Positions 1,332 through 58,928 of a DNA stretch of 64,000 nt are shown here, one piece after another. Positions within the stretch are counted from its first letter, which is position 1; every line of letters starts with the position of its first letter. The notes under the pieces are model-generated. The model worked only from the letters and a program-made list of their open reading frames with translations, did not search any database and was not told where the DNA came from. The stretch comes from a virus, in the IMG/VR virus record IMGVR_UViG_3300046373_000099, positions 1 to 64,000 of that record. One strand, given 5' to 3'. Made by a program: the position numbers and the translations under genes.

Positions 1332-1460
1332 CTATTTCTTTTGGCGTCGTTGTCGCTCTCGATACGGGTCTTTCACTTTCTCCAACCAGACTCCGACGTC
1401 GTGCGGGAAGAACCACGCCCACCACGCGATAAAGAATAGGAGAACTCCAAGCGCGTTCAC
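1332..1460 (-). CDS. Small single-pass membrane protein (42 aa)
   Basis: The frame opens with GTG at 1460, overlapping the TGA of the upstream gene as GTGA, and ends at TAG (1332-1334). The N-terminal 18 residues are strongly hydrophobic and aromatic (LLFFIAWWAWFF). They are followed by a basic, soluble C-terminus (EKVKDPYRERQRRQKK). No family is recognised. The coupling, the amphipathic design and the exact fit between two genes argue that it is real. Confidence 0.65.
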   Translation of the reverse strand: MNALGVLLFFIAWWAWFFPHDVGVWLEKVKDPYRERQRRQKK

Positions 1461-2722
1461 GCCGCTACCCCCATCTTTTGATTGTCATTGGCCGCCGCAT
1501 ACCGGCCAGCAACCATTTCCGGCCGTAGCGTGCTCCTACCAACCTCACCATACTGTTTCGAATACGTGATGACCTTGGCGGACCGCCCAGATAGCCAGCC
1601 ACCGCCAGCAGCATAGGCGTCAGGCGCGGCAAGCGTCTCGTGGCGCTCGACATACATCAGGCCGGACTTGCGGCCCTCGTCGCTGTGCAGGTGGCCGATG
1701 TGAGCATATGCGAACTTGCTGCGGCCGTAGAGTTCACGAAAGATACCGGCCAGCGTTGCATCCACATTGTTGACGCCGCGTTTATGGCCGTGATGAAACA
1801 TGAGGGCCGTGCTGCCCCATTCATAGGCGTAGTAGAGCATAGGGCTGGTATCGACCGTGACACGCGGCTCGTTTTCATAGATAGTTGCCAGGAGTTCGCG
1901 CACCCAGACCGACGAGGCCGGATCGTGGTTGCCGGAAGCCATGACGACGTGAACGTGCCGATGCTTCTGCAGAAGCATATCAATGATGCGCCTCAAGGTG
2001 CGGATTACCACCCGCACGACTTTATGCAGGCGGCTATCGGCGTCGAGCACGTGCCGGTGGGCTGGCGTGACGCTCTCGAGGCTGTCATGATGCATCAGGT
2101 CGCCGATCTGCGCCAGAACAGCCGTGTCGGCTTGCGGCGCACCGGCTACAGCAGCGGAGAACCAATCCAGCAGCAACTGTTCCGCCAGCTTCAGGTCGTA
2201 GTCTGCACCCGTCTCCTCGCGGTGTGCCAGCATTCCGAAGTGGCTGTCCGTCACAACGAACTGATTGAGCAAGTCCGCCTCGACGCTTGCCGGTGGCAGC
2301 ATCATAGTAACTCGCGGCAGGTCTTCTTTCAGTGCAGCGATCGTCGCCGCAAGCATAGCGGCTTGGTGCTCAGCCTCCTTCGATGTCTTATGCCAAGTCA
2401 GCACCACACGCCCCTCGGCATCTGTCAGAACTGACTGAGCCTTAAGCGCTTGGCCTGCCGGCGCTTCGTACTGCTCGCCGTGTTCTTTGACTTGTTTGAT
2501 CCAAGCGCCGGTGGCGTCCTTGGAGGAGATCGACTTGATCGCGTAGCCCGTTACGACCGGGCTGGTTCCCAACAGTCCCCGCTCCGCCGCTCTCTTCAAT
2601 CTGTCTTGGAACGACGATCTGGCCAGCCCCAGCGCTTTTGCGGCAAGAACTTGCGTGCCGTGTTCGGCCAGTGCGTCAACGGCTTCCTGGATCTGTTCTT
2701 TAGTCAATGGTGGTTGTGGCAA
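1457..2722 (-). CDS. HTH-metallophosphoesterase fusion
   Basis: A 421-residue protein. Residues 5-50 form a helix-turn-helix of the kind that reads QVLAAKALGLARSSFQDRL. After a linker, a calcineurin-like phosphoesterase core follows: TDSHFG (158-163), GDLMHHD (207-213), GNHDP (264-268), HHGHKRG (310-316) and GHLH (343-346). The core resembles SbcD/Mre11-type or YfcE-type enzymes. The HTH suggests that it acts on or near DNA, which is inference. The C-terminus carries an AANDN motif (about 1481-1492) followed by a short VAA-ending tail. It overlaps the neighbouring genes at both ends. Proteins with this HTH-phosphoesterase layout are frequent in rhizobial phages, to my knowledge without a proven role. 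Confidence 0.85.
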   Translation of the reverse strand: MPQPPLTKEQIQEAVDALAEHGTQVLAAKALGLARSSFQDRLKRAAERGLLGTSPVVTGYAIKSISSKDATGAWIKQVKEHGEQYEAPAGQALKAQSVLTDAEGRVVLTWHKTSKEAEHQAAMLAATIAALKEDLPRVTMMLPPASVEADLLNQFVVTDSHFGMLAHREETGADYDLKLAEQLLLDWFSAAVAGAPQADTAVLAQIGDLMHHDSLESVTPAHRHVLDADSRLHKVVRVVIRTLRRIIDMLLQKHRHVHVVMASGNHDPASSVWVRELLATIYENEPRVTVDTSPMLYYAYEWGSTALMFHHGHKRGVNNVDATLAGIFRELYGRSKFAYAHIGHLHSDEGRKSGLMYVERHETLAAPDAYAAGGGWLSGRSAKVITYSKQYGEVGRSTLRPEMVAGRYAAANDNQKMGVAA

Positions 2723-3203: not shown

Positions 3204-3373
3204 GTTTTGGGCTTCTGCGATAGAGACCGCGCAACTATGAGCATTTCCATCTGGAAGCGCTCCTTGGTAATCTTCTTTTCGCGGTAGTCGGCGCGGATGT
3301 TGGCCTCTGCCTCCGCGATCATTTCTTCGTCCGTCATTTGCTGGTCACGGCCAGAACCTCGCATAGGAATCAT
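3200..3373 (-). CDS. Small helical hypothetical protein (57 aa)
   Basis: ATG at 3373 overlaps the upstream TGA as ATGA; the stop is at 3200-3202. The predicted protein is highly charged and helical (DQQMTDEEMIAEAEANIR, then KEKR-rich residues) with no hydrophobic segment. It is kept because it fits exactly between two coupled genes. No family is recognised. Confidence 0.6.
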   Translation of the reverse strand: MIPMRGSGRDQQMTDEEMIAEAEANIRADYREKKITKERFQMEMLIVARSLSQKPKT

Positions 3374-3801
3374 AACAACGGCACCTCCCGCCCCTGCTCT
3401 TTCACTTCCCCAGCCGCACCGCCACCTTCCTCCGCAAATCCAGGCGAACCCTCGCCATCGATGTCAGCGCCGACCGTGCCGCCAGACCCAAGTGCGGCGT
3501 CTAGCGAAGCCTGCAGAGCGTTAGCCGTGCCGGTGGTGTACGGCAGGCGGTAGAATCTTGGGCCGTCTTCGGAATCGAGAAGAACATAAATCGCAACATC
3601 GACTTCGATCTTGGCGCCCAGCACAGCGTAGTGGCCGGGTGCGGGTTGCCATGGGGCGGCGTGTCCGAGTGGGATGAATGAAGCGGGAAGTATAAGAAAA
3701 GCGAGGATGGCGAAAACCATTGCGCGCCGCGTCGTATCTCTTCGGCACACAACCGCCATCACGAGGACGAAGGCTAGCCAGAGGGTGATGGCGGGGGTCA
3801 T
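3370..3801 (-). CDS. Membrane-anchored hypothetical protein (143 aa)
   Basis: The likely start is ATG 3801, which overlaps the upstream stop as ATGA; a longer frame to 3825 exists but has no such coupling. The N-terminus has two hydrophobic helices (about 4-20 and 29-48) joined by RRDTTRR, then a soluble domain with YAVLGAKIEVDVAIYVLL and a Gly/Glu-rich tail. By the positive-inside rule the Arg-rich loop would be cytoplasmic and both ends periplasmic. No family is recognised. Confidence 0.65.
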   Translation of the reverse strand: MTPAITLWLAFVLVMAVVCRRDTTRRAMVFAILAFLILPASFIPLGHAAPWQPAPGHYAVLGAKIEVDVAIYVLLDSEDGPRFYRLPYTTGTANALQASLDAALGSGGTVGADIDGEGSPGFAEEGGGAAGEVKEQGREVPLL

Positions 3802-4031
3802 GCTGCAAGCCCTCCGAAATCCCACTCATGGACGAGAAACAGGTGGCATTCGAACTCGTCGCGAGTCATCCCCTTCAGATCCGACACCCCAGCTTTCGGA
3901 GTCCACGTCCAGTCGCGGTTGAGTTTATAGCCAGCATCCTCAAGGAACTTGATCGGCCCCGCATCGTCGATGTCGCTACCGAATCTGGCATTCATCAGAC
4001 CGCGCAGTTCGTCGCTTGCTTGTGGCATCAC
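3798..4031 (-). CDS. Hypothetical protein (77 aa)
   Basis: A soluble protein rich in acidic and aromatic residues, with the segment GYKLNRDWTWTPKAG followed by ECHLFLVHEWDFGG. It starts at 4031, 8 nt after the upstream ExbD-like gene ends, and overlaps the next gene by ATGA, so it lies within the same transcription unit. No family is recognised. Confidence 0.6.
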   Translation of the reverse strand: MMPQASDELRGLMNARFGSDIDDAGPIKFLEDAGYKLNRDWTWTPKAGVSDLKGMTRDEFECHLFLVHEWDFGGLAA

Positions 4032-4039
4032 TTCCCCTC

Positions 4040-4573
4040 CTATTTCATCATCTTGAAAACATGGTTCGCACTACCGGCGACGACCTTGCCACCAGCTATG
4101 CGGAACCGGATCGCGGTTTTCTCTTGCTTATCCAGGTCCAACTGAACCGGCCCAGACCAAACCAAACCCCCTTCAGCCAATCGAACTTCCACCCCGACAA
4201 CCACCGGAACCTTGCCTGCGCAGCCAAAGCAGCGAACGTTGACGGCATACTCGCCGTCGGGGAGGCCGCGCGTGAACGCGGACTCGTAGTTAAGCGGCGT
4301 GTCATCGTTGGCCGTGCCGAGGTCGTCACGCAGCAAGGACCACGTGCGTCCCGACTTCCGGCTGTAATCCACCGGCCCGTCGTTCGGAGCGCCGACACGG
4401 AGATCGACGTCAATGCTGCCGGCGGGCCAATTGATGGTGGCGACTAGGTTGCCGGGTGGTGAGAGGGGGGCTTCTTTTGTGGCTGGCGCCACCGAGGGCA
4501 GCACCAACATGACGATCGCGACAACGGCAAGTAGCATGGCCAGCAGCGTGTCCCATATGAGCGTCCGGATCAT
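4040..4573 (-). CDS. ExbD/TolR-like protein with DUF2135-like periplasmic domain
   Basis: A 177-residue protein with a single N-terminal helix, IRTLIWDTLLAMLLAVV. It carries one Asp (D8) followed by leucines, the arrangement of the proton-carrying Asp in ExbD, TolR and MotB. The exported part is a predicted beta-sandwich with INWPAGSIDVDLRV, a conserved DDLG turn, NYES and LPDGEYAVNV. This pattern recalls DUF2135 (YfaP-type) domains rather than the usual ExbD fold. It overlaps the upstream ExbB-like gene by ATGA, as expected for a two-component proton channel. The channel function is inferred from the pair. Confidence 0.65.
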   Translation of the reverse strand: MIRTLIWDTLLAMLLAVVAIVMLVLPSVAPATKEAPLSPPGNLVATINWPAGSIDVDLRVGAPNDGPVDYSRKSGRTWSLLRDDLGTANDDTPLNYESAFTRGLPDGEYAVNVRCFGCAGKVPVVVGVEVRLAEGGLVWSGPVQLDLDKQEKTAIRFRIAGGKVVAGSANHVFKMMK

Positions 4574-5040
4574 TCGGACGCCTCCATGTGGAGAACGTAG
4601 CTGTTGGTTCCCATCCAGAGCGTCGAGATCGCGCCGACCAGGGTGGAGCAGAACGCAACGCCGAGGCCGTCAATAAGGGCCATGCCCATCTTGAGCAGGC
4701 CAGCCGCACTCGTCAGATCGCCGCCACCCATGCCCTGCAAGGCAAGAACGAAGCCAGTGAGATTCCCGATTAGACCGAGAAGCACGACCCATGTTTTGGC
4801 ATGCGGCAGGATACGGGTGTGACCGAGGAAGACAGCAACCAGCGAAACGGCAAGCACGCCACTGATCACATAAGACAGGCCGCTGATGTCATGCGTAAAC
4901 ACAAAACCCACATAGCCCATCACAGCCGCCCACACGACCAGCGCGGCCCAGCAGACGTTGAGGACGATGAGCTTTGCGGTGATGCCGGAGAGCGGCTTGG
5001 GGGTATGGTAGTCGAGGTGGGTTGGGAGGGTGTCGGTCAT
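4570..5040 (-). CDS. ExbB/TolQ/MotA-like membrane channel subunit
   Basis: A 156-residue protein with four predicted helices (about 20-49, 53-75, 82-104 and 111-142). The last contains GMALIDGLGVAFCSTLVGA (119-137). This is the small-residue and Thr/Ser-rich pattern that lines the pore in MotA, TolQ and ExbB (compare the family pattern ALxxTxxGLxVAI). It is shorter than TolQ or ExbB (about 230-245 aa) and lacks their large cytoplasmic domain. The gene lies directly upstream of a one-helix Asp-bearing partner, and the two overlap by 4 nt. It could alternatively be an unrelated four-helix protein; the pair argues for a stator-like complex. Confidence 0.6.
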   Translation of the reverse strand: MTDTLPTHLDYHTPKPLSGITAKLIVLNVCWAALVVWAAVMGYVGFVFTHDISGLSYVISGVLAVSLVAVFLGHTRILPHAKTWVVLLGLIGNLTGFVLALQGMGGGDLTSAAGLLKMGMALIDGLGVAFCSTLVGAISTLWMGTNSYVLHMEASE

Positions 5041-5234
5041 TCGCCTAACTCCTGAAAAACCACAAATCGGTAACCCTCAAGCGCGCCGGAGAGAAGGACC
5101 ATTATTGCTGTTGCGCCACCGAACCCAAACAGGCCGGTTACCTCGCCTACAGAAAGCAGCACCGCCAGCACTACAGAGGCAACGGCTACCGCAAGGATAA
5201 ACATGACCATGAAGTCCATCAGCTTATCCATCAC
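5037..5234 (-). CDS. Two-helix membrane protein (65 aa)
   Basis: Two hydrophobic segments, FMVMFILAVAVASVVLAVLL (about 8-27) and FGGATAIMVLLSGALEG, leave almost no soluble part. The start overlaps the protease stop, and its stop overlaps the ExbB-like start (both ATGA), so four genes form one tightly coupled cassette. No family is recognised. It may be an accessory subunit of the channel. Confidence 0.65.
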   Translation of the reverse strand: MMDKLMDFMVMFILAVAVASVVLAVLLSVGEVTGLFGFGGATAIMVLLSGALEGYRFVVFQELGE

Positions 5235-5881
5235 ACACCCCTCCCCATTAATTCACAGACCGCCGAAGTCGGCACAGCCATCCCAAACCCCGTCAGCGAC
5301 GGCACGTAATTCTTGCCCAGCGGCAACGGGGCCAGAGCAACGGCTGAAGTCACGCCGACCAGCTCTCCCTTGCTGTCAAAAATGCCACCCCCAGACATCC
5401 CCATGACGGTCGTCATGTCGGTGATGTATGCCGCTTTATGCTGGCCGGTCTTTCTAGCGTCGCCAGAGATTTTTCCAGAAGAGGATACAAACTCAATGTT
5501 CAGCGGGTTGCCGTCGGCGCGGATGGCATCTCCCTGATGGAGCGTGCGGCACGACAGGTTGGCCACCGCAATGCCGACGGCCGTAGTGCGCAGCAGCGCG
5601 ATATCGTATTCTTTGTTGGTCCACAGCACAGACGCGTAGCGCTGGTTGCCGTGGTCGGTCTTGATCACCACCGTCTTCTGGTCGCCGACCACATGGGCCG
5701 CCGTCACTATGTAGCCTTGGCCGATATGCGTGCCGGAGCCGTGGCCTTGACTCACGACAACCTTGACGGAATAGCCCGACGTAACGACGGGTGGTGCGCC
5801 AGCGTTGCTGGGATATGCGAAGAACGTGGCCGCGCCGATCAGGACGGCAAGAAATCCAAGCAGGTATCTTCTATGTGGCAT
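5231..5881 (-). CDS. Secreted trypsin-like serine protease
   Basis: A 216-residue S1-fold protease with a complete triad: His63 in VTAAHVVG, Asp93 in KEYDIALLR and Ser163 in MGMSGGGIFDS. The first 29 residues (RRYLLGFLAVLIGAATFFA) are a signal peptide or membrane anchor, so it should act in the periplasm. ATG 5881 is chosen because GAGGAGAC lies 5 nt upstream. The longer frame to 5941 would place its start inside the -10 box of the promoter at 5938-5966. It is the first gene of the accessory unit and is coupled to the three membrane genes that follow. The substrate is unknown. Confidence 0.85.
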   Translation of the reverse strand: MPHRRYLLGFLAVLIGAATFFAYPSNAGAPPVVTSGYSVKVVVSQGHGSGTHIGQGYIVTAAHVVGDQKTVVIKTDHGNQRYASVLWTNKEYDIALLRTTAVGIAVANLSCRTLHQGDAIRADGNPLNIEFVSSSGKISGDARKTGQHKAAYITDMTTVMGMSGGGIFDSKGELVGVTSAVALAPLPLGKNYVPSLTGFGMAVPTSAVCELMGRGV

Positions 5882-5937
5882 GTTGGTCTCCTCTGTGGTG
5901 ATGGCTGGTGAGGCCGTGGTGGGAGGTACTATTTCCA

Positions 5938-5966
5938 ACAATAGTTTATATTTACAAAATTGTCAA
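5938..5966 (-). promoter_or_regulatory. Phage promoter/operator copy 1, drives the accessory arm
   Basis: On the minus strand: -35 TTGACA (5966-5961), 17-nt spacer ATTTTGTAAATATAAAC, -10 TATTGT (5943-5938). The 29 bp are identical to the copies at 36493-36521 and 58900-58928. ACAATTTTGT, a short dyad, overlaps the -35 box and is a candidate operator. The promoter fires into the protease gene. Confidence 0.85.
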
Positions 5967-5996: not shown

Positions 5997-6032
5997 GAAA
6001 AAAGCCCGCTCACCTGTTAGGGCGAGCGGGCT
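5997..6032 (-). terminator. Rho-independent terminator at the end of the late operon
   Basis: A 9-bp perfect stem (AGCCCGCTC 6003-6011 with GAGCGGGCT 6024-6032) is followed on the minus strand by six T. It lies just after the last gene of the lysis block (stop at 6038) and before the next promoter, separating the two units. Confidence 0.88.
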
Positions 6033-6499: not shown

Positions 6500-6847
6500 T
6501 CAAGTAGCCCGACGAGGTTGCGGCTTCACCGCCTGGTTTTCGACGACACGGTCAACGCGCAGCGCCATGTGATCCACGGCTTGTTTGACGCCTTGCAGGG
6601 CTTCCATAATCAGCTCTGTCGATTCCCGCATCCCAGCCTTGGTAATGTAGGTCTCTGCACAATGAAGGCGATGCTCCGCCAGCTCCTGCCGCGTCAGGCC
6701 AGCCAAGGCCGAGGCTGCGGCCGCAACCGTTGAAGCCTCTATCTTCGCCTTCTCGATCTTGCCATCTACATATCGCCACATGCCGAACAGCACGCCGAAC
6801 ACGGTGATGCCGAAGACAACCACCGCCATCAATTCGGGTCCGCTCAT
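6500..6847 (-). CDS. Lysis-block membrane protein with coiled coil
   Basis: A 115-residue protein with one N-terminal helix (LMAVVVFGITVFGVLFGMWRYV), followed by a long charged helix with Ala-rich heptads (about 30-105) and a basic tail. Its start overlaps the Rz1-like stop by ATGA. By layout it could be a second spanin-like or holin-regulating protein; no family is certain. Confidence 0.65.
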   Translation of the reverse strand: MSGPELMAVVVFGITVFGVLFGMWRYVDGKIEKAKIEASTVAAAASALAGLTRQELAEHRLHCAETYITKAGMRESTELIMEALQGVKQAVDHMALRVDRVVENQAVKPQPRRAT

Positions 6848-7137
6848 GGATCACCTCTTAAGCCTGCGTCACGAGAGACAACCACATCACGCAGCGCCAG
6901 ATGGCGGCGATAACAGGTCAGCAACCGTTTGCGGTCGGAGATCCAGAGCTTTTCAAGCTGCACCTGCGCCAAGGCATTCGTGCCGAGATCAATGGGCAGG
7001 TCGCACTTTTGCAGCAAGGCTGAATCAATCAAGGCGATTTGCGGACGAACCGCAGGACTAACGGATCGAGTTGATACGGCGCACCCCGGCAGCGCCAAGA
7101 GCAGCACGGCCAGCATCAGGGTCTTTGTCGGCTTCAT
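6844..7137 (-). CDS. Rz1-like outer-membrane spanin lipoprotein
   Basis: A 97-residue protein with a lipoprotein signal ending in the lipobox LPGC (residues 16-19). The mature part contains QKCDLPIDLG and a Trp-x-x-DRxRLLxCYRRH helix, features shared by many Rz1-like partners in alphaproteobacterial phages. Its first 80 nt overlap the end of the Rz-like gene in another frame, a hallmark of Rz/Rz1 pairs. The start is supported by AAGGAG 8 nt upstream. With Rz it would fuse inner and outer membranes at lysis. Confidence 0.78.
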   Translation of the reverse strand: MKPTKTLMLAVLLLALPGCAVSTRSVSPAVRPQIALIDSALLQKCDLPIDLGTNALAQVQLEKLWISDRKRLLTCYRRHLALRDVVVSRDAGLRGDP

Positions 7138-7426
7138 CGGCCAGCTCCTTGATTCGTGTTTCTAGTTCGGAGTTGGCGGCTTGCAGGTCGGCGATGCGGG
7201 CGGCCTCGAGAGCCTTGGCCGCATTGTTCGCAATGACCTGCCGCATGATTTCCTTGGCGCGCGCGTCGTTGTATTCGGCCACGAGTTTGTCGTATTTGAT
7301 TTGGTACTCCACAGCCGCCCGCTGGTAGCCTTGGTGGTCAATGTAGACGTAGACACCCCACAGGGCGGCGATGGCCACCAGCGCGGCCAGCAGGTAGGCG
7401 GCGGGCTTGCTAAAAATTAAAGACAT
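7058..7426 (-). CDS. Rz-like inner-membrane spanin
   Basis: An N-terminal helix (AAYLLAALVAIAALWGVYVYI) is followed by a long periplasmic coiled coil (about 35-100) and the family ending DAGRAALGAAGVRRINSIR. This is the architecture of i-spanins. ATG 7426 is preferred to GTG 7429 because GGAG lies 7 nt upstream. The gene overlaps the holin stop at one end and the Rz1 gene at the other. Confidence 0.85.
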   Translation of the reverse strand: MSLIFSKPAAYLLAALVAIAALWGVYVYIDHQGYQRAAVEYQIKYDKLVAEYNDARAKEIMRQVIANNAAKALEAARIADLQAANSELETRIKELADEADKDPDAGRAALGAAGVRRINSIR

Positions 7427-7728
7427 CACTGCTCCACTGTCACGTTGGTGGTGGTGTCGGGATTATCGACGGCGGACTGAGCGACATCGGCCTTCAACTC
7501 ATTCTTGCGATCCCAGACAGCGCCGAAGACATAACTGCCAAGCGTGCCGCCAAAGAGCGTCGAGAGGTTGATGAGTGCGACGTCGAGCAGCGGATTGGTA
7601 ACGGCCCGCAGCATCGCCCACGCAATGATTACCGTGATGGCAATGGCCTCCCAGATCATCGACAGGATAATGATGCGCCGGCGCACCGCCCAGTCAGGCG
7701 ATGCCTTGTGATCCATGAAGAACCGCAT
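7426..7728 (-). CDS. Putative holin (100 aa)
   Basis: The real protein probably starts at MRFFMDHKASP (ATG 7728), just inside the end of the amidase gene. It has two hydrophobic helices (about 19-43 and 52-74) separated by a short NPLLD turn, a basic segment before helix 1 and a polar Thr/Asp-rich tail. Its size, topology and place between amidase and Rz fit a class II holin. Family membership was not verified. Confidence 0.65.
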   Translation of the reverse strand: MRFFMDHKASPDWAVRRRIIILSMIWEAIAITVIIAWAMLRAVTNPLLDVALINLSTLFGGTLGSYVFGAVWDRKNELKADVAQSAVDNPDTTTNVTVEQ

Positions 7729-7729
7729 T

Positions 7730-8263
7730 TTACAACAGCCTGGCCACGGCAGCCCGAAGCAAATCGCCGCACGCCTTGGCGCCCTTAACCTCCGGAGCGA
7801 ATGCCAAACGGGTGAAATCCCATTTCCCGCGCTGAGTGATGCCGAGTGTCCCCTGCACTTCTGCATGGGAAAGCACGGTCTTCGGCGTGACTGGAATGCC
7901 GTAGAACCGGCATAGGTCGGCGACGACAACGGCCAGCTTATCCCACTGCGCCTTGGTCATCGGAGCCTTGCCGGGATTGAACGGACTTTCCGTTGCCAGA
8001 GCCATGCAGCAGAGCGACACGCCAATCGATCCAGTGTTGCAGTTCAGCGTGTGGGCGGCATAGCCCTTCTTGGCGGGCGCGGCATTGAGGTCGATCGTTG
8101 GCTTGCCGCGGATTACGTCGCCATCATCCTCAATCAGAATGTGGTAGTGCGCCTTGTCATCCTCGCTCGCCTTGTGATGGCCAGCGGTCCAGTGGCAGAT
8201 GACCCGCTGCATTTTCGCAGCCGGAAGCCACCCGGCAGGCAATGCCTGTAAGGTTGCGGTCAT
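7730..8263 (-). CDS. Endolysin: N-acetylmuramoyl-L-alanine amidase (Amidase_2)
   Basis: A 177-residue enzyme with the Zn-ligand pattern of Amidase_2/PGRP: ICHWTAG at about 22-28, YAAHTLNCNTGSIGVSL near 68-85, and the second ligand region SHAEVQ with KWDFTRLAF in the last third. It cleaves the amide bond between MurNAc and the stem peptide. No signal peptide is seen, so release depends on the holin encoded next to it. It is preceded by a CCACCATCACCACAAGGA leader. Confidence 0.88.
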   Translation of the reverse strand: MTATLQALPAGWLPAAKMQRVICHWTAGHHKASEDDKAHYHILIEDDGDVIRGKPTIDLNAAPAKKGYAAHTLNCNTGSIGVSLCCMALATESPFNPGKAPMTKAQWDKLAVVVADLCRFYGIPVTPKTVLSHAEVQGTLGITQRGKWDFTRLAFAPEVKGAKACGDLLRAAVARLL

Positions 8264-8447: not shown

Positions 8448-9014
8448 ATGAGCAAGACATTATTGACCAAGGCGGATTTCACTGAATATCTTTCGCCGTT
8501 TGAATTTCCGCCGAAATCTCCGTTCATTCGATCTTTGATGACGCACATCCGCTATTTGGATGATGAAATGATTGACTATTTGGCCGGGGCCATGATTGCA
8601 TCTAGTCGATGGAAAGAATTCTGCATCGAGATGCTGGCCATTTCGGATGAAGCTAAAAATGTTGGTCGCATCCTCGCAATCGTCCTAGCCGAGAAAGTGC
8701 CATCCATCCCACTTCAGAAATACGTTGAAGACGCTAACGCGATTTCTCTTTTCATTTCCTCAATGATTCGAAACGACACCACACTTTCAATATTGGGCAC
8801 TTTGCAAGCCTCAGCGAGCTTAGCTGATATCCTTTTTATCCGTTGCGATGACATTGAAGTGAGCGCTGAGATCCTGTCGGCTAAAGTAATTGTAGTTGGC
8901 AATCAGACAGAAATTGAGCTGCACAGCGAGCAATTGGGCAAATATGCGCCGGAAGATGACGCAATGGTCTGTTCGTCCTTTCTCGTCATGCGGCCAAGCC
9001 GCTTAGAGGAATAA
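8448..9014 (+). CDS. Hypothetical protein of the fibre-side insertion
   Basis: A 188-residue helical protein on the strand opposite to the structural genes, preceded by GAGG 6 nt before ATG. No motif is recognised. Codon and base use are clearly more AT-rich than the flanking phage genes, which suggests recent acquisition with the next gene (1 nt gap). The 184 bp upstream contain the inverted repeat CGGTA-gtct-TACCG, but no convincing promoter. Confidence 0.75.
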   Translation: MSKTLLTKADFTEYLSPFEFPPKSPFIRSLMTHIRYLDDEMIDYLAGAMIASSRWKEFCIEMLAISDEAKNVGRILAIVLAEKVPSIPLQKYVEDANAISLFISSMIRNDTTLSILGTLQASASLADILFIRCDDIEVSAEILSAKVIVVGNQTEIELHSEQLGKYAPEDDAMVCSSFLVMRPSRLEE

Positions 9015-9015
9015 C

Positions 9016-11040
9016 ATGGATATCGCAGGCTTTTTAAGTTCCTTCAGATATGCTGAGCCAGGCGACATGGCTCGAAAAATTATAGCCGTAAAGCAGGCAG
9101 AGCAATGCTTTCAAAGGCAGGGTGAAGAGCCGATCGTGCTTGATCCCTCATCAACTTCTAAATACATGTTTGGCCGGCACGGCGAAGACGATTTCTACAC
9201 GGCATTGCTTGCTGCTGCATTCCGAGACGACAAGCAGACGTATCTGCCAGACGCAGCGTTTTTCAACCGAACGGTTATGCAGTTGACCTATCAGGTCAGA
9301 TTTCAGCTCGAAAGGATGCCGCCGGAAGCTGCCCTCATATTTTCAAACGAACGCATGTTCTGCGCCTCCATGCTTCATGCGAATGATGTCCTAGGAGTTC
9401 GCGTCTCCCCGCCCAATGTACAGCATTCGCCAAACGCTGGATTTGAGCCAGCATGGGCAGCATTTTCCCACCTCGAACTTAACCGCCCGAGGTTCGCCAC
9501 GACAGATTGCGAAGGCATCACGTCAACCCTCGAAAAGCATCAAAGAAAAAGGATTGGGGCAATACTGATTGACCTCGATTTTTTGCAACGCCCAATCAAC
9601 CTCGCGAAGGACATCCCAGACGTTTCCGAATTGATCACGGCTCAAACGATTCTTTCAGTCGTCGGGGTGGCAGAGCATGTCACAGCAGCTGCAATTGACA
9701 TTGAAGGGCGTTATCCTAAAGCTGTAGTCCACTGCCGCACCTACGAAGAAGACCGCTTAAACAGTTCATTCCCAAGGGCTATGTTAACGGTTTGGAATTT
9801 GCTTGAGCTACCAGACGTAGACATGCGGAACCACACAGCTACAACTATAAGGTATACCGATCAACAAGATATTTCTACTGATGGTTCAGAATTAAGAAGT
9901 CTAACATATCGCCCGCTTGAGCCAGCCTTAGTTAAAAAGCCAATTTTGTCGTACAGCAGCGCGCCGCTCATCTCGGAAATTAATCGTCATCTCACGAAGA
10001 CAAGACACTTGGTGCACTCAGTCACGACAATGAGCAATGCCAGTATGTTTGTTGATTTTTCGAACTACAATTACTTCACAAAGTCCGGTTTTTTACCATT
10101 AGATTTGGGTCTTGGGGGCGGCGAAGGGCAGACCGGCTCCCTCTACAAGTCGAGTATCGTTGATGACGATAAAAAAAGAACAAGCGTGCTCCGCACAAAA
10201 TCTGTTCAGAAGGTGCGAGGGGTGGCTATGCCACTTCAGTTTCACAAAACGCTTCACCAATTCTTTTCCCATTTCCTCATCCAATGCTACCCGCGCCTGC
10301 TTCTGATCAAAGAGCTTGGGCTGCCTGACGATACGAAAATTATTGTACCATCTGACATCTTTCCGAAGCAGGTTCAGATGCTGATTGCTTTCGGCATCAA
10401 GCCCGAAAACATTGTGTACCTACACAAAGATAATCTGCTGAAAGTGGATGAACTAGTAATCCCTAGAGCTTGGTCTTTGGCATTCTCCGAATTCACCACT
10501 TCGATTTATCCCCGATTGATGGAGAATCTGAATATATCGCCAAAGAAGTTCGATCGAAAGATTCTGATCAGTCGAGCCTATCGCAAAACATGGCGCAACC
10601 TTCTTAACGGTTTTCAGGTCGAAAGTGTTCTGCAGGACCTCGGCTTTGACGTGGTCAGACCCGAGAAACTGTCCCTTGAAGAAGAAATCAGACTGTATGC
10701 AGAGAGCCGTATCATCGCCGGCTCCGAGGGAGCTGGCCTGTATGGAGCATGTTATTCTGGACCCGGCCGAGCCGTTGTCTCTATCAGCGACGGTGACTAC
10801 GCAATGCCGATCATTGGAACCCTTGCGCAGTACACCGGGTTTGACGTTTCTCATTATTTCGGGATCAGCATGAGGGCGGAGGGCGACATGGCAAGGCGCC
10901 CAGGCCGTTTACATTGCGACTACGTCGTTGATCCCATGAAGGTTAAAGACACAGTGCAAGCGACGTCAGACCATCTGGATCGCGAATATCCGGAACAGAT
11001 ATCAAAGCGAACTCTTCTCTCAAAAATTTTGCGCCGTTAG
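9016..11040 (+). CDS. GT61-like (DUF563) glycosyltransferase
   Basis: A 674-residue protein. The C-terminal third carries the DUF563/GT61 signature: KILISRAYRK, then ESRIIAGSEGAGLYGACYS near residues 560-580 and ISDGDY. The first 280 residues have no recognised domain. There is no signal peptide. The gene is AT-rich, runs against the tail genes and ends with overlapping convergent stop codons (TAG/TAA at 11037-11040) with the tailspike gene. It may modify host surface glycan (superinfection exclusion) or virion proteins; both are inference from its place beside fibre genes. Confidence 0.75.
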   Translation: MDIAGFLSSFRYAEPGDMARKIIAVKQAEQCFQRQGEEPIVLDPSSTSKYMFGRHGEDDFYTALLAAAFRDDKQTYLPDAAFFNRTVMQLTYQVRFQLERMPPEAALIFSNERMFCASMLHANDVLGVRVSPPNVQHSPNAGFEPAWAAFSHLELNRPRFATTDCEGITSTLEKHQRKRIGAILIDLDFLQRPINLAKDIPDVSELITAQTILSVVGVAEHVTAAAIDIEGRYPKAVVHCRTYEEDRLNSSFPRAMLTVWNLLELPDVDMRNHTATTIRYTDQQDISTDGSELRSLTYRPLEPALVKKPILSYSSAPLISEINRHLTKTRHLVHSVTTMSNASMFVDFSNYNYFTKSGFLPLDLGLGGGEGQTGSLYKSSIVDDDKKRTSVLRTKSVQKVRGVAMPLQFHKTLHQFFSHFLIQCYPRLLLIKELGLPDDTKIIVPSDIFPKQVQMLIAFGIKPENIVYLHKDNLLKVDELVIPRAWSLAFSEFTTSIYPRLMENLNISPKKFDRKILISRAYRKTWRNLLNGFQVESVLQDLGFDVVRPEKLSLEEEIRLYAESRIIAGSEGAGLYGACYSGPGRAVVSISDGDYAMPIIGTLAQYTGFDVSHYFGISMRAEGDMARRPGRLHCDYVVDPMKVKDTVQATSDHLDREYPEQISKRTLLSKILRR

Positions 11041-36492: not shown

Positions 36493-36521
36493 ACAATAGT
36501 TTATATTTACAAAATTGTCAA
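36493..36521 (-). promoter_or_regulatory. Phage promoter/operator copy 2, ahead of nuclease, terminase and structural genes
   Basis: -35 TTGACA (36521-36516), 17-nt spacer, -10 TATTGT (36498-36493) on the minus strand. It is identical across 29 bp to copies 1 and 5. No other strong promoter is seen until the late terminators, so it may feed the whole leftward late operon. Confidence 0.85.
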
Positions 36522-45242: not shown

Positions 45243-45271
45243 ACAGTAGTTTATATTTACAAAATTGTCAA
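45243..45271 (-). promoter_or_regulatory. Phage promoter/operator copy 3
   Basis: -35 TTGACA (45271-45266), 17-nt spacer identical to copies 1, 2 and 5, -10 TACTGT (45248-45243), one base different in the -10 box. The -35 lies right after the helicase stop. It drives the genes from 45209 leftward through the methyltransferases. Confidence 0.82.
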
Positions 45272-58899: not shown

Positions 58900-58928
58900 T
58901 TGACAATTTTGTAAATATAAACTATTGT
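58900..58928 (+). promoter_or_regulatory. Phage promoter/operator copy 5, rightward
   Basis: TTGACA (58900-58905), spacer ATTTTGTAAATATAAAC, TATTGT (58923-58928). Identical to copies 1 and 2, but on the plus strand, so the promoter points to the integrase-side genes. It lies just behind the 58706 gene. Confidence 0.85.

What the first reader, a model, noticed from the sequence alone, without database searches (positions are those of the whole stretch)
4040..5966. Phage-encoded energised-membrane cassette: protease, small membrane protein, ExbB-like and ExbD-like pair under its own repressible promoter
Four genes overlapping by ATGA encode a secreted trypsin-like protease (H63/D93/S163), a two-helix protein, a four-helix protein with a MotA/TolQ/ExbB-like pore helix (GLGVAFCSTLVGA) and a one-helix protein with a membrane Asp (D8) and a DUF2135-like exported domain. 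They start right after a terminator, behind a copy of the shared phage promoter, so they form a separate unit. Known proton-channel pairs energise TonB, Tol, flagella or Zorya defence (ZorAB). A pair coupled to a periplasmic protease is not a layout I recognise. It could serve superinfection exclusion, envelope remodelling at lysis, or defence.
Basis: partly seen in the sequence, partly recalled or inferred. Interest (0 to 1): 0.82.

Follow-up and report, generated by a model that had tools for sequence, protein, structure and literature searches.

The report
Phage proton-motor-like operon with exported protease
Many phages of alphaproteobacteria carry a short, unstudied operon for a membrane machine related to the proton-powered motors of bacteria, usually paired with an interchangeable exported protein that is most often a protein-cutting enzyme, and versions of the machine without that partner sit in ordinary bacterial chromosomes.

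Summary
The reading frames are real and under purifying selection, but the cassette must be redrawn as: exported slot-1 protein, then A, B, C. A (4570-5040) belongs to the MotA/TolQ/ExbB family (29 of 37 homologues hit PF01618, best 4.8e-9; the family profile finds ZorA and MotA in the PDB). B (4040-4573) has the expected membrane Asp but is not ExbD: no PF02472 match, and a predicted beta-sandwich. The 65-aa protein is not conserved. Slot-1 is exchangeable between close relatives: trypsin-like protease (35 loci), tentatively ClpP-like exported protein (13), small exported protein (10). No paper found describes the operon. Most likely it is a proton-driven envelope complex made during infection that acts through the periplasm with slot-1. 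Superinfection exclusion is my first choice, a lysis accessory my second; neither was tested: 46 of 58 slot-bearing loci adjoin lysis genes, yet one phage without an annotated integrase carries it among DNA-metabolism genes.

The parts
6003..6032 (-). intrinsic terminator closing the lysis-side genes upstream
   Evidence: 12-bp stem, 9 GC pairs, T tail
5938..5966 (-). promoter TTGACA-N17-TATTGT, copy of a phage-wide element (others at 36521-, 45271-, 58900+, partial 53736-)
   Evidence: TTGACAAATTTGT lies about 70-170 bp upstream of the protease in most 16-3-like relatives
5231..5881 (-). slot-1: exported trypsin-like serine protease, 216 aa, single domain
   Evidence: PF13365 1.8e-20, PF00089 2.7e-7; phrog_9683 protease 1.2e-53; H63/S163 39/39; N-terminal hydrophobic segment
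5037..5231 (-). 64-65-aa two-helix protein (ATG 5231 or GTG 5234); not conserved in other copies
   Evidence: one weak relative only
4570..5040 (-). A: four-helix MotA/TolQ/ExbB-family protein with a short cytoplasmic loop
   Evidence: 29/37 homologues hit PF01618, best 4.8e-9; profile hits ZorA 5.4e-5 in PDB; hhalign to TolQ/ExbB over the last two helices E=1e-4; G89, G92, G96, G125, A129, W142 invariant and T/S133 conserved
4040..4573 (-). B: one-helix protein with membrane Asp8 and an exported beta-sandwich domain
   Evidence: D8 in 38/39; AlphaFold2 model pLDDT 91, helix 2-28, strands 43-160; no ExbD match
3798..4031 (-). small gene between B and C (Pam3_gp59-like); content of this position varies between phages
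   Evidence: PF23986 1.7e-15; no relative in the other copies
3370..3801 (-).
   Evidence: present in every A-B locus, all 25 and all but two viral loci; AlphaFold2 pLDDT 75; Foldseek OB folds, weak
6500..8263 (-). lysis-side genes just upstream: amidase endolysin 7730-8263, Rz-like 7058-7429, LPGC lipoprotein (Rz1 candidate) 6844-7137, TM protein with AETYITKAGM motif 6500-6847
   Evidence: PF01510 1.4e-15; Rz-like spanin PHROGs

Best explanation
Shown: a viral form of an uncharacterised operon, A-B-C, that also occurs on alphaproteobacterial chromosomes and megaplasmids; A is a MotA/TolQ/ExbB-family protein, B carries the membrane Asp typical of the axle subunits, C is a constant third partner, and in phages an exported, exchangeable slot-1 protein (here a trypsin-like protease) is encoded just before A, often translationally coupled to it. 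Inferred: A and B form a ring-and-axle ion channel in the inner membrane that lets protons in and moves or opens B's beta-sandwich and C's OB-like domain in the periplasm, and this controls or positions the slot-1 protein. In the infected cell or lysogen the unit changes the envelope; my first choice is that it blocks entry of competing phages (superinfection exclusion).
For: A family membership. Membrane Asp of B 38/39. A-B-C together in all 76 loci (46 distinct), in all 25 chromosomal loci (one reordered, one running off its contig), and in nearly all 82 distinct viral loci. 57/385 genomes of the class hold B. Slot-1 overlaps A by ATGA in 10/13 ClpP-like, 5/10 small-protein and 7/35 protease loci. 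Non-homologous slot-1 proteins alternate on sister A-B-C modules: L042 small protein / L161 ClpP-like / L186 protease; L154 protease / L157 ClpP-like. Made during infection rather than only at lysis: own copy of a phage-wide promoter that also precedes non-structural operons, and in phage RHph_N3_13, with no annotated integrase, A-B-C plus an exported protease lie on the strand of DNA-metabolism genes, opposite to lysozyme and structural genes. Four host genomes hold no copy but the prophage one.
Against: No functional test exists. 46 of 58 slot-bearing viral loci lie directly downstream of endolysin/spanin genes, and the ClpP-like and small-protein types mostly start 28-66 bp after them, which fits a lysis role equally well. 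Chromosomal A-B-C units have no recognised slot-1 protein and varied neighbours, so the basic function is not phage-specific. Complex formation and ion flow were not tested. The small slot-1 protein is not recognisably an enzyme, and the ClpP-like call rests on weak matches.
Confidence: 0.37

Rival explanations
1. Lysis accessory. The complex and the exported protease finish the envelope at lysis, for example by cutting or pulling the protein tethers between outer membrane and cell wall, perhaps held inactive until the holin collapses the proton gradient.
For: 46/58 slot-bearing viral loci lie just downstream of an endolysin or Rz gene, with several unrelated endolysins; none detected in 24 slot-less A-B-C loci. 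ClpP-like and small-protein types mostly begin 28-66 bp after the previous gene.
Against: Spanin-like genes are already present here. In the 16-3 group a terminator and its own promoter separate the unit from the lysis genes. In RHph_N3_13 it lies on the opposite strand from lysozyme, among DNA-metabolism genes. The lysis query set came partly from the same loci, so the 0/24 is soft. The end of the lysis genes is a common site for accessory genes (established knowledge).
Confidence: 0.27
2. Envelope maintenance or stress relief: the phage brings a copy of a chromosomal envelope-care system so that the cell stays productive during infection; the slot-1 protease removes damaged periplasmic proteins, as HtrA proteases do.
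For: A-B-C is a chromosomal unit in many bacteria; the slot-1 protease resembles the HtrA/DegP protease domain (TIGR02037 2.5e-21).
Against: Repeated exchange of slot-1 for unrelated proteins is more like an effector slot than housekeeping; four prophage-bearing host genomes lack a chromosomal copy, so nothing is being duplicated there.
Confidence: 0.18
3. Decoy or blocker of host stator-type systems: the minimal A and B co-assemble with and poison host Zorya, Tol or Ton motor subunits.
For: The closest solved structures by profile are ZorA proteins; A lacks the large cytoplasmic part of ZorA.
Against: The A-B-C unit is self-contained, under purifying selection, and occurs on chromosomes; whether it tracks Zorya-bearing hosts was not tested.
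Confidence: 0.08
4. Unrelated neighbours: A-B-C and the slot-1 gene are accessory genes sharing a convenient site, without joint function.
For: Small unrelated genes and homing endonucleases also sit inside the cassette.
Against: A-B-C order is constant across very divergent loci; slot-1 is placed before and often translationally coupled to A in three non-homologous types; in RHph_N3_13 a divergent exported protease is again nearby.
Confidence: 0.1

Closest known systems
MotA/TolQ/ExbB proton channel family (PF01618), incl. ExbBD, TolQR, MotAB
   Same: A: last two helices with LG(L/F)(I/V)G(N/T)xxGF and GxxxAFCSTLVGA motifs; partner with one helix and membrane Asp encoded next to it
   Different: A is only about 130-156 aa in phages with almost no cytoplasmic loop; the partner's exported domain is a predicted beta-sandwich, not the ExbD/TolR or OmpA-like fold; a constant third protein C; exported slot-1 protein in phages
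Zorya ZorAB
   Same: ZorA proteins are the best profile matches among solved structures; weak PADLOC ZorA matches
   Different: no long cytoplasmic tail, no ZorB match, no ZorC/D/E among the cassette proteins scanned; B and C match no Zorya model
Rhizobium phage 16-3 genes p036, p038, p040, p042
   Same: orthologous slot-1 protease, A, B and C in the same order
   Different: annotated only as protease and p038/p040/p042; no function described in the papers found
HtrA/DegP/DegS trypsin-like proteases
   Same: protease domain with H/D/S triad, exported
   Different: 216 aa, no PDZ domain; well below the curated cut-offs of the NCBI models
ClpP-type proteases (for the alternative slot-1 protein)
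   Same: only ClpP chains are found in the PDB by the profile, with the GG and CASAC motif region aligned
   Different: E about 1, no Pfam or NCBIfam hit for this family; exported, small

Membership tests
MotA/TolQ/ExbB (PF01618) | significant profile match | tested here: met
   29/37 family members E<=0.01, best 4.8e-9; L081 36.5 bits and L079 27.7 bits over the 22.9 cut-off. The window sequence alone has none
MotA/TolQ/ExbB (PF01618) | conserved motifs in the two pore helices, incl. Thr/Ser | tested here: met
   T/S133 in 37/37, N/T/S93 in 37/37
MotA/TolQ/ExbB (PF01618) | pentamer around two axle proteins, ion conduction | not testable with these tools
   no complex prediction or assay available
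ExbD/TolR (PF02472) | profile match | tested here: not met
   no match for B in Pfam at E<=1, none at the B loci in five whole genomes at E<=1, hhalign none
ExbD/TolR (PF02472) | single N-terminal helix with conserved Asp | tested here: met
   D8 38/39; helix 2-28
ExbD/TolR (PF02472) | ExbD/TolR-type periplasmic fold | tested here: not met
   predicted all-beta sandwich; weak Foldseek matches to MmpS5 and DUF4425, none to ExbD/TolR among the listed hits
Zorya | ZorA with long cytoplasmic tail, ZorB, and ZorC/D or ZorE | tested here: not met
   A is 156 aa; no ZorB/C/D/E model matched the cassette proteins scanned
Tol-Pal | TolA, TolB, Pal in the locus | tested here: not met
   none among cassette proteins by Pfam
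S1 trypsin-like protease | H/D/S triad and Trypsin_2 match | tested here: met
   (Asp replaced by Glu in 7/39)
Spanin/holin/endolysin lysis proteins | match to lysis families | tested here: not met
   no lysis PHROG for slot-1, A or B, nor for the ORF holding C (3370-3825)
ClpP superfamily (alternative slot-1 protein) | profile or fold match | tested here: inconclusive
   PDB profile search returns only ClpP chains but at E 1-1.6

The most novel reading that the evidence does not exclude
A distinct class of proton-driven envelope machine (ring A, beta-sandwich axle B, OB-domain partner C), widespread on chromosomes and repeatedly used by phages, that powers or gates interchangeable exported effectors, including proteases of unrelated folds, to defend the infected cell or to break its envelope.
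Probability: 0.4. Interest if true: 0.88.

Novelty: new variant of a known kind. Interest (0 to 1): 0.74.

Why it matters
Proton-driven 5:2 motors are known for Ton, Tol, flagella, gliding and Zorya. Here is a further, unnamed branch with a different axle domain and a third partner, conserved on chromosomes and carried by phages with an exchangeable exported protein in front. It is present in the classical, genetically workable phage 16-3 of Sinorhizobium meliloti, so its role in exclusion, lysis or envelope care can be tested at once.

Tried and rejected
Pfam, PHROGs, NCBIfam and PADLOC on the window proteins alone: only the protease was named; the stator link needed homologue profiles. The first hhalign run used wrong-strand ORFs and was discarded, repeated correctly. 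Idea that B is ExbD or a DUF2135 protein: rejected. Idea that the 65-aa protein is a core part: rejected. Idea that the promoter is a C-repressor target as in 16-3: the element TTGACAAATTTGT differs from the annotated OL/OR sequences. Conserved neighbours of the chromosomal units: none found (simple gene calling in GC-rich DNA is unreliable there). Literature on phage-encoded ExbB/ExbD-like pairs, 16-3 p036-p042 and periplasmic-protease exclusion: nothing found, within an open-access library only. The structure of A was not folded; the two jobs went to B and C. Foldseek of B against viral models gave no homologous small protein. Slot-less 'viral' contigs of 196-376 kb may be cellular, so the slot-less class is not counted as phage evidence.

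Full report
What is in the window. Slot-1 (5231-5881) is a single-domain exported trypsin-like protease. The terminator at 6032-6003 and the promoter at 5966-5938 are there. The 28-base promoter core occurs four times in the window, against none in shuffles, and a shorter form a fifth time. The other copies precede non-structural operons.

Relatives. tblastn against phage records found the genes in Rhizobium phages 16-3, RHph_X2_25 and RHph_TM3_3_14B and Sinorhizobium phages AP-16-3 and NV1.1.1, all in the order protease, A, B, C, with small genes or homing endonucleases in between. The 65-aa membrane protein is not among the conserved ones. Profiles made from these found A, B and C in all 76 loci examined, 46 of them distinct, and in nearly all of 82 distinct viral loci after wider scans.

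What A is. The window protein alone has no Pfam match to the stator family, but 29 of 37 homologues do, the best at 4.8e-9, and chromosomal and marine relatives pass the curated cut-off. A profile of 10 sequences against the PDB returned only four hits, all MotA/ZorA-type; with 37 sequences ZorA comes at 5.4e-5. hhalign places the last two helices of A on the same helices of TolQ/ExbB, with GLIGN on GLFGT and GLGVAFCSTLVGA on GIAEALLATGIGL (E=1e-4). A is therefore a member of the MotA/TolQ/ExbB family; that it forms a ring and conducts protons is inferred.

What B and C are. B has one helix with Asp8, kept in 38 of 39, like the axle proteins. Its exported part is a predicted beta-sandwich (pLDDT 91) with weak structural matches to MmpS5 and DUF4425; no test links it to ExbD. 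Asp55, Asp57, Asp83, Asp84 and Glu97 are invariant, perhaps a metal site. C has two helices and a predicted OB-like domain (pLDDT 75). Positive charges between its helices suggest that the domain is periplasmic (inference).

Chromosomal form. B occurs in 57 of 385 genomes of the class, 16 of 398 of the phylum and on Azospirillum megaplasmids. In all 25 class loci read, B lies next to C and A, except one locus whose contig ends before A. No protease of the phage type lies beside them and neighbours vary. Four genomes carrying the prophage form have no other copy.

The exchangeable slot. In phages the gene just before A encodes an exported protein: trypsin-like in 35 distinct loci, a family with a GTEIHFHGxCASAC motif in 13, a small WT...CxVAxGxxW protein in 10 (in one of the ten, L148, it is 3.5 kb away). 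The 13-member family resembles ClpP in motif (from my knowledge of COG3904-type proteins) and its profile finds only ClpP chains in the PDB, but at E about 1, so the assignment is tentative. On the B tree the three types alternate between well-supported sisters: L042/L161/L186, L154/L157, and L189 with L187/L188. Slot-1 and A overlap by ATGA in 10/13, 5/10 and 7/35 of the ClpP-like, small-protein and protease types.

Timing and place. 46 of the 58 slot-bearing loci have an endolysin or Rz gene just upstream, and two of the types usually start 28-66 bp after the preceding gene. In the 16-3 group the unit has its own promoter element about 70-170 bp before the protease; in 16-3 that element occurs at seven places in the stretches read, apart from the C-repressor operators. 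In RHph_N3_13 divergent A, B and C (6e-10, 4.5e-26, 0.002) and an exported trypsin-like protease lie among DNA-metabolism genes, on the strand opposite to lysozyme and structural genes.

Judgement. The anatomy supports a proton-driven complex working in the periplasm with an exported partner. For its use, exclusion of other phages fits the promoter, the RHph_N3_13 location and the exchangeable slot; a lysis role fits the usual neighbours. I put exclusion slightly ahead, at low confidence. No paper in the searched library describes the operon, which does not prove that none exists.

Noticed in passing
window 8448-11040 (+): Two genes on the opposite strand in a lower-GC block (0.50 against about 0.58) between tail fibre and endolysin; 9016-11040 matches Glycosyltransferase 61 (PF04577, 2.3e-17). 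Possibly a surface-modifying accessory pair.
   Followed up: partly
window 36494-36521, 45244-45271, 58900-58927, 53736: Further copies of the cassette's promoter core, before non-structural operons; a phage-wide regulon whose regulator is unknown. In 16-3 the related element differs from the C-repressor operators.
   Followed up: partly
window 6500-6847 and relatives in 58 ORFs of the loci: Membrane protein family with AETYxTKAGMxEQT motif, usually in the lysis cassette; function unknown, possibly holin-like.
   Followed up: partly
L008, L010, L003, L034; L007: Homing endonuclease-like genes (GIY-YIG/Seg-like, HNH) inserted between the genes of the cassette, or just behind B.
   Followed up: no
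L012-L015 (Pootjesviridae), L011 (oyster-associated phage): Large Rhizobium phages and an unrelated phage carry a lone exported trypsin-like protease without A-B-C; in the large phages it lies beside the major head protein gene.
   Followed up: no
window 1457-2659 (-); L229 6296-7054: A metallophosphoesterase-like gene follows C both in the 16-3 group and in RHph_N3_13.
   Followed up: no
L142 6858-7568, L143 7328-8116: In two chromosomal loci a predicted lipoprotein family follows C.
   Followed up: no
L166, L175, L193, L212: IMG/VR contigs of 196-376 kb with slot-less A-B-C may be cellular rather than viral.
   Followed up: no
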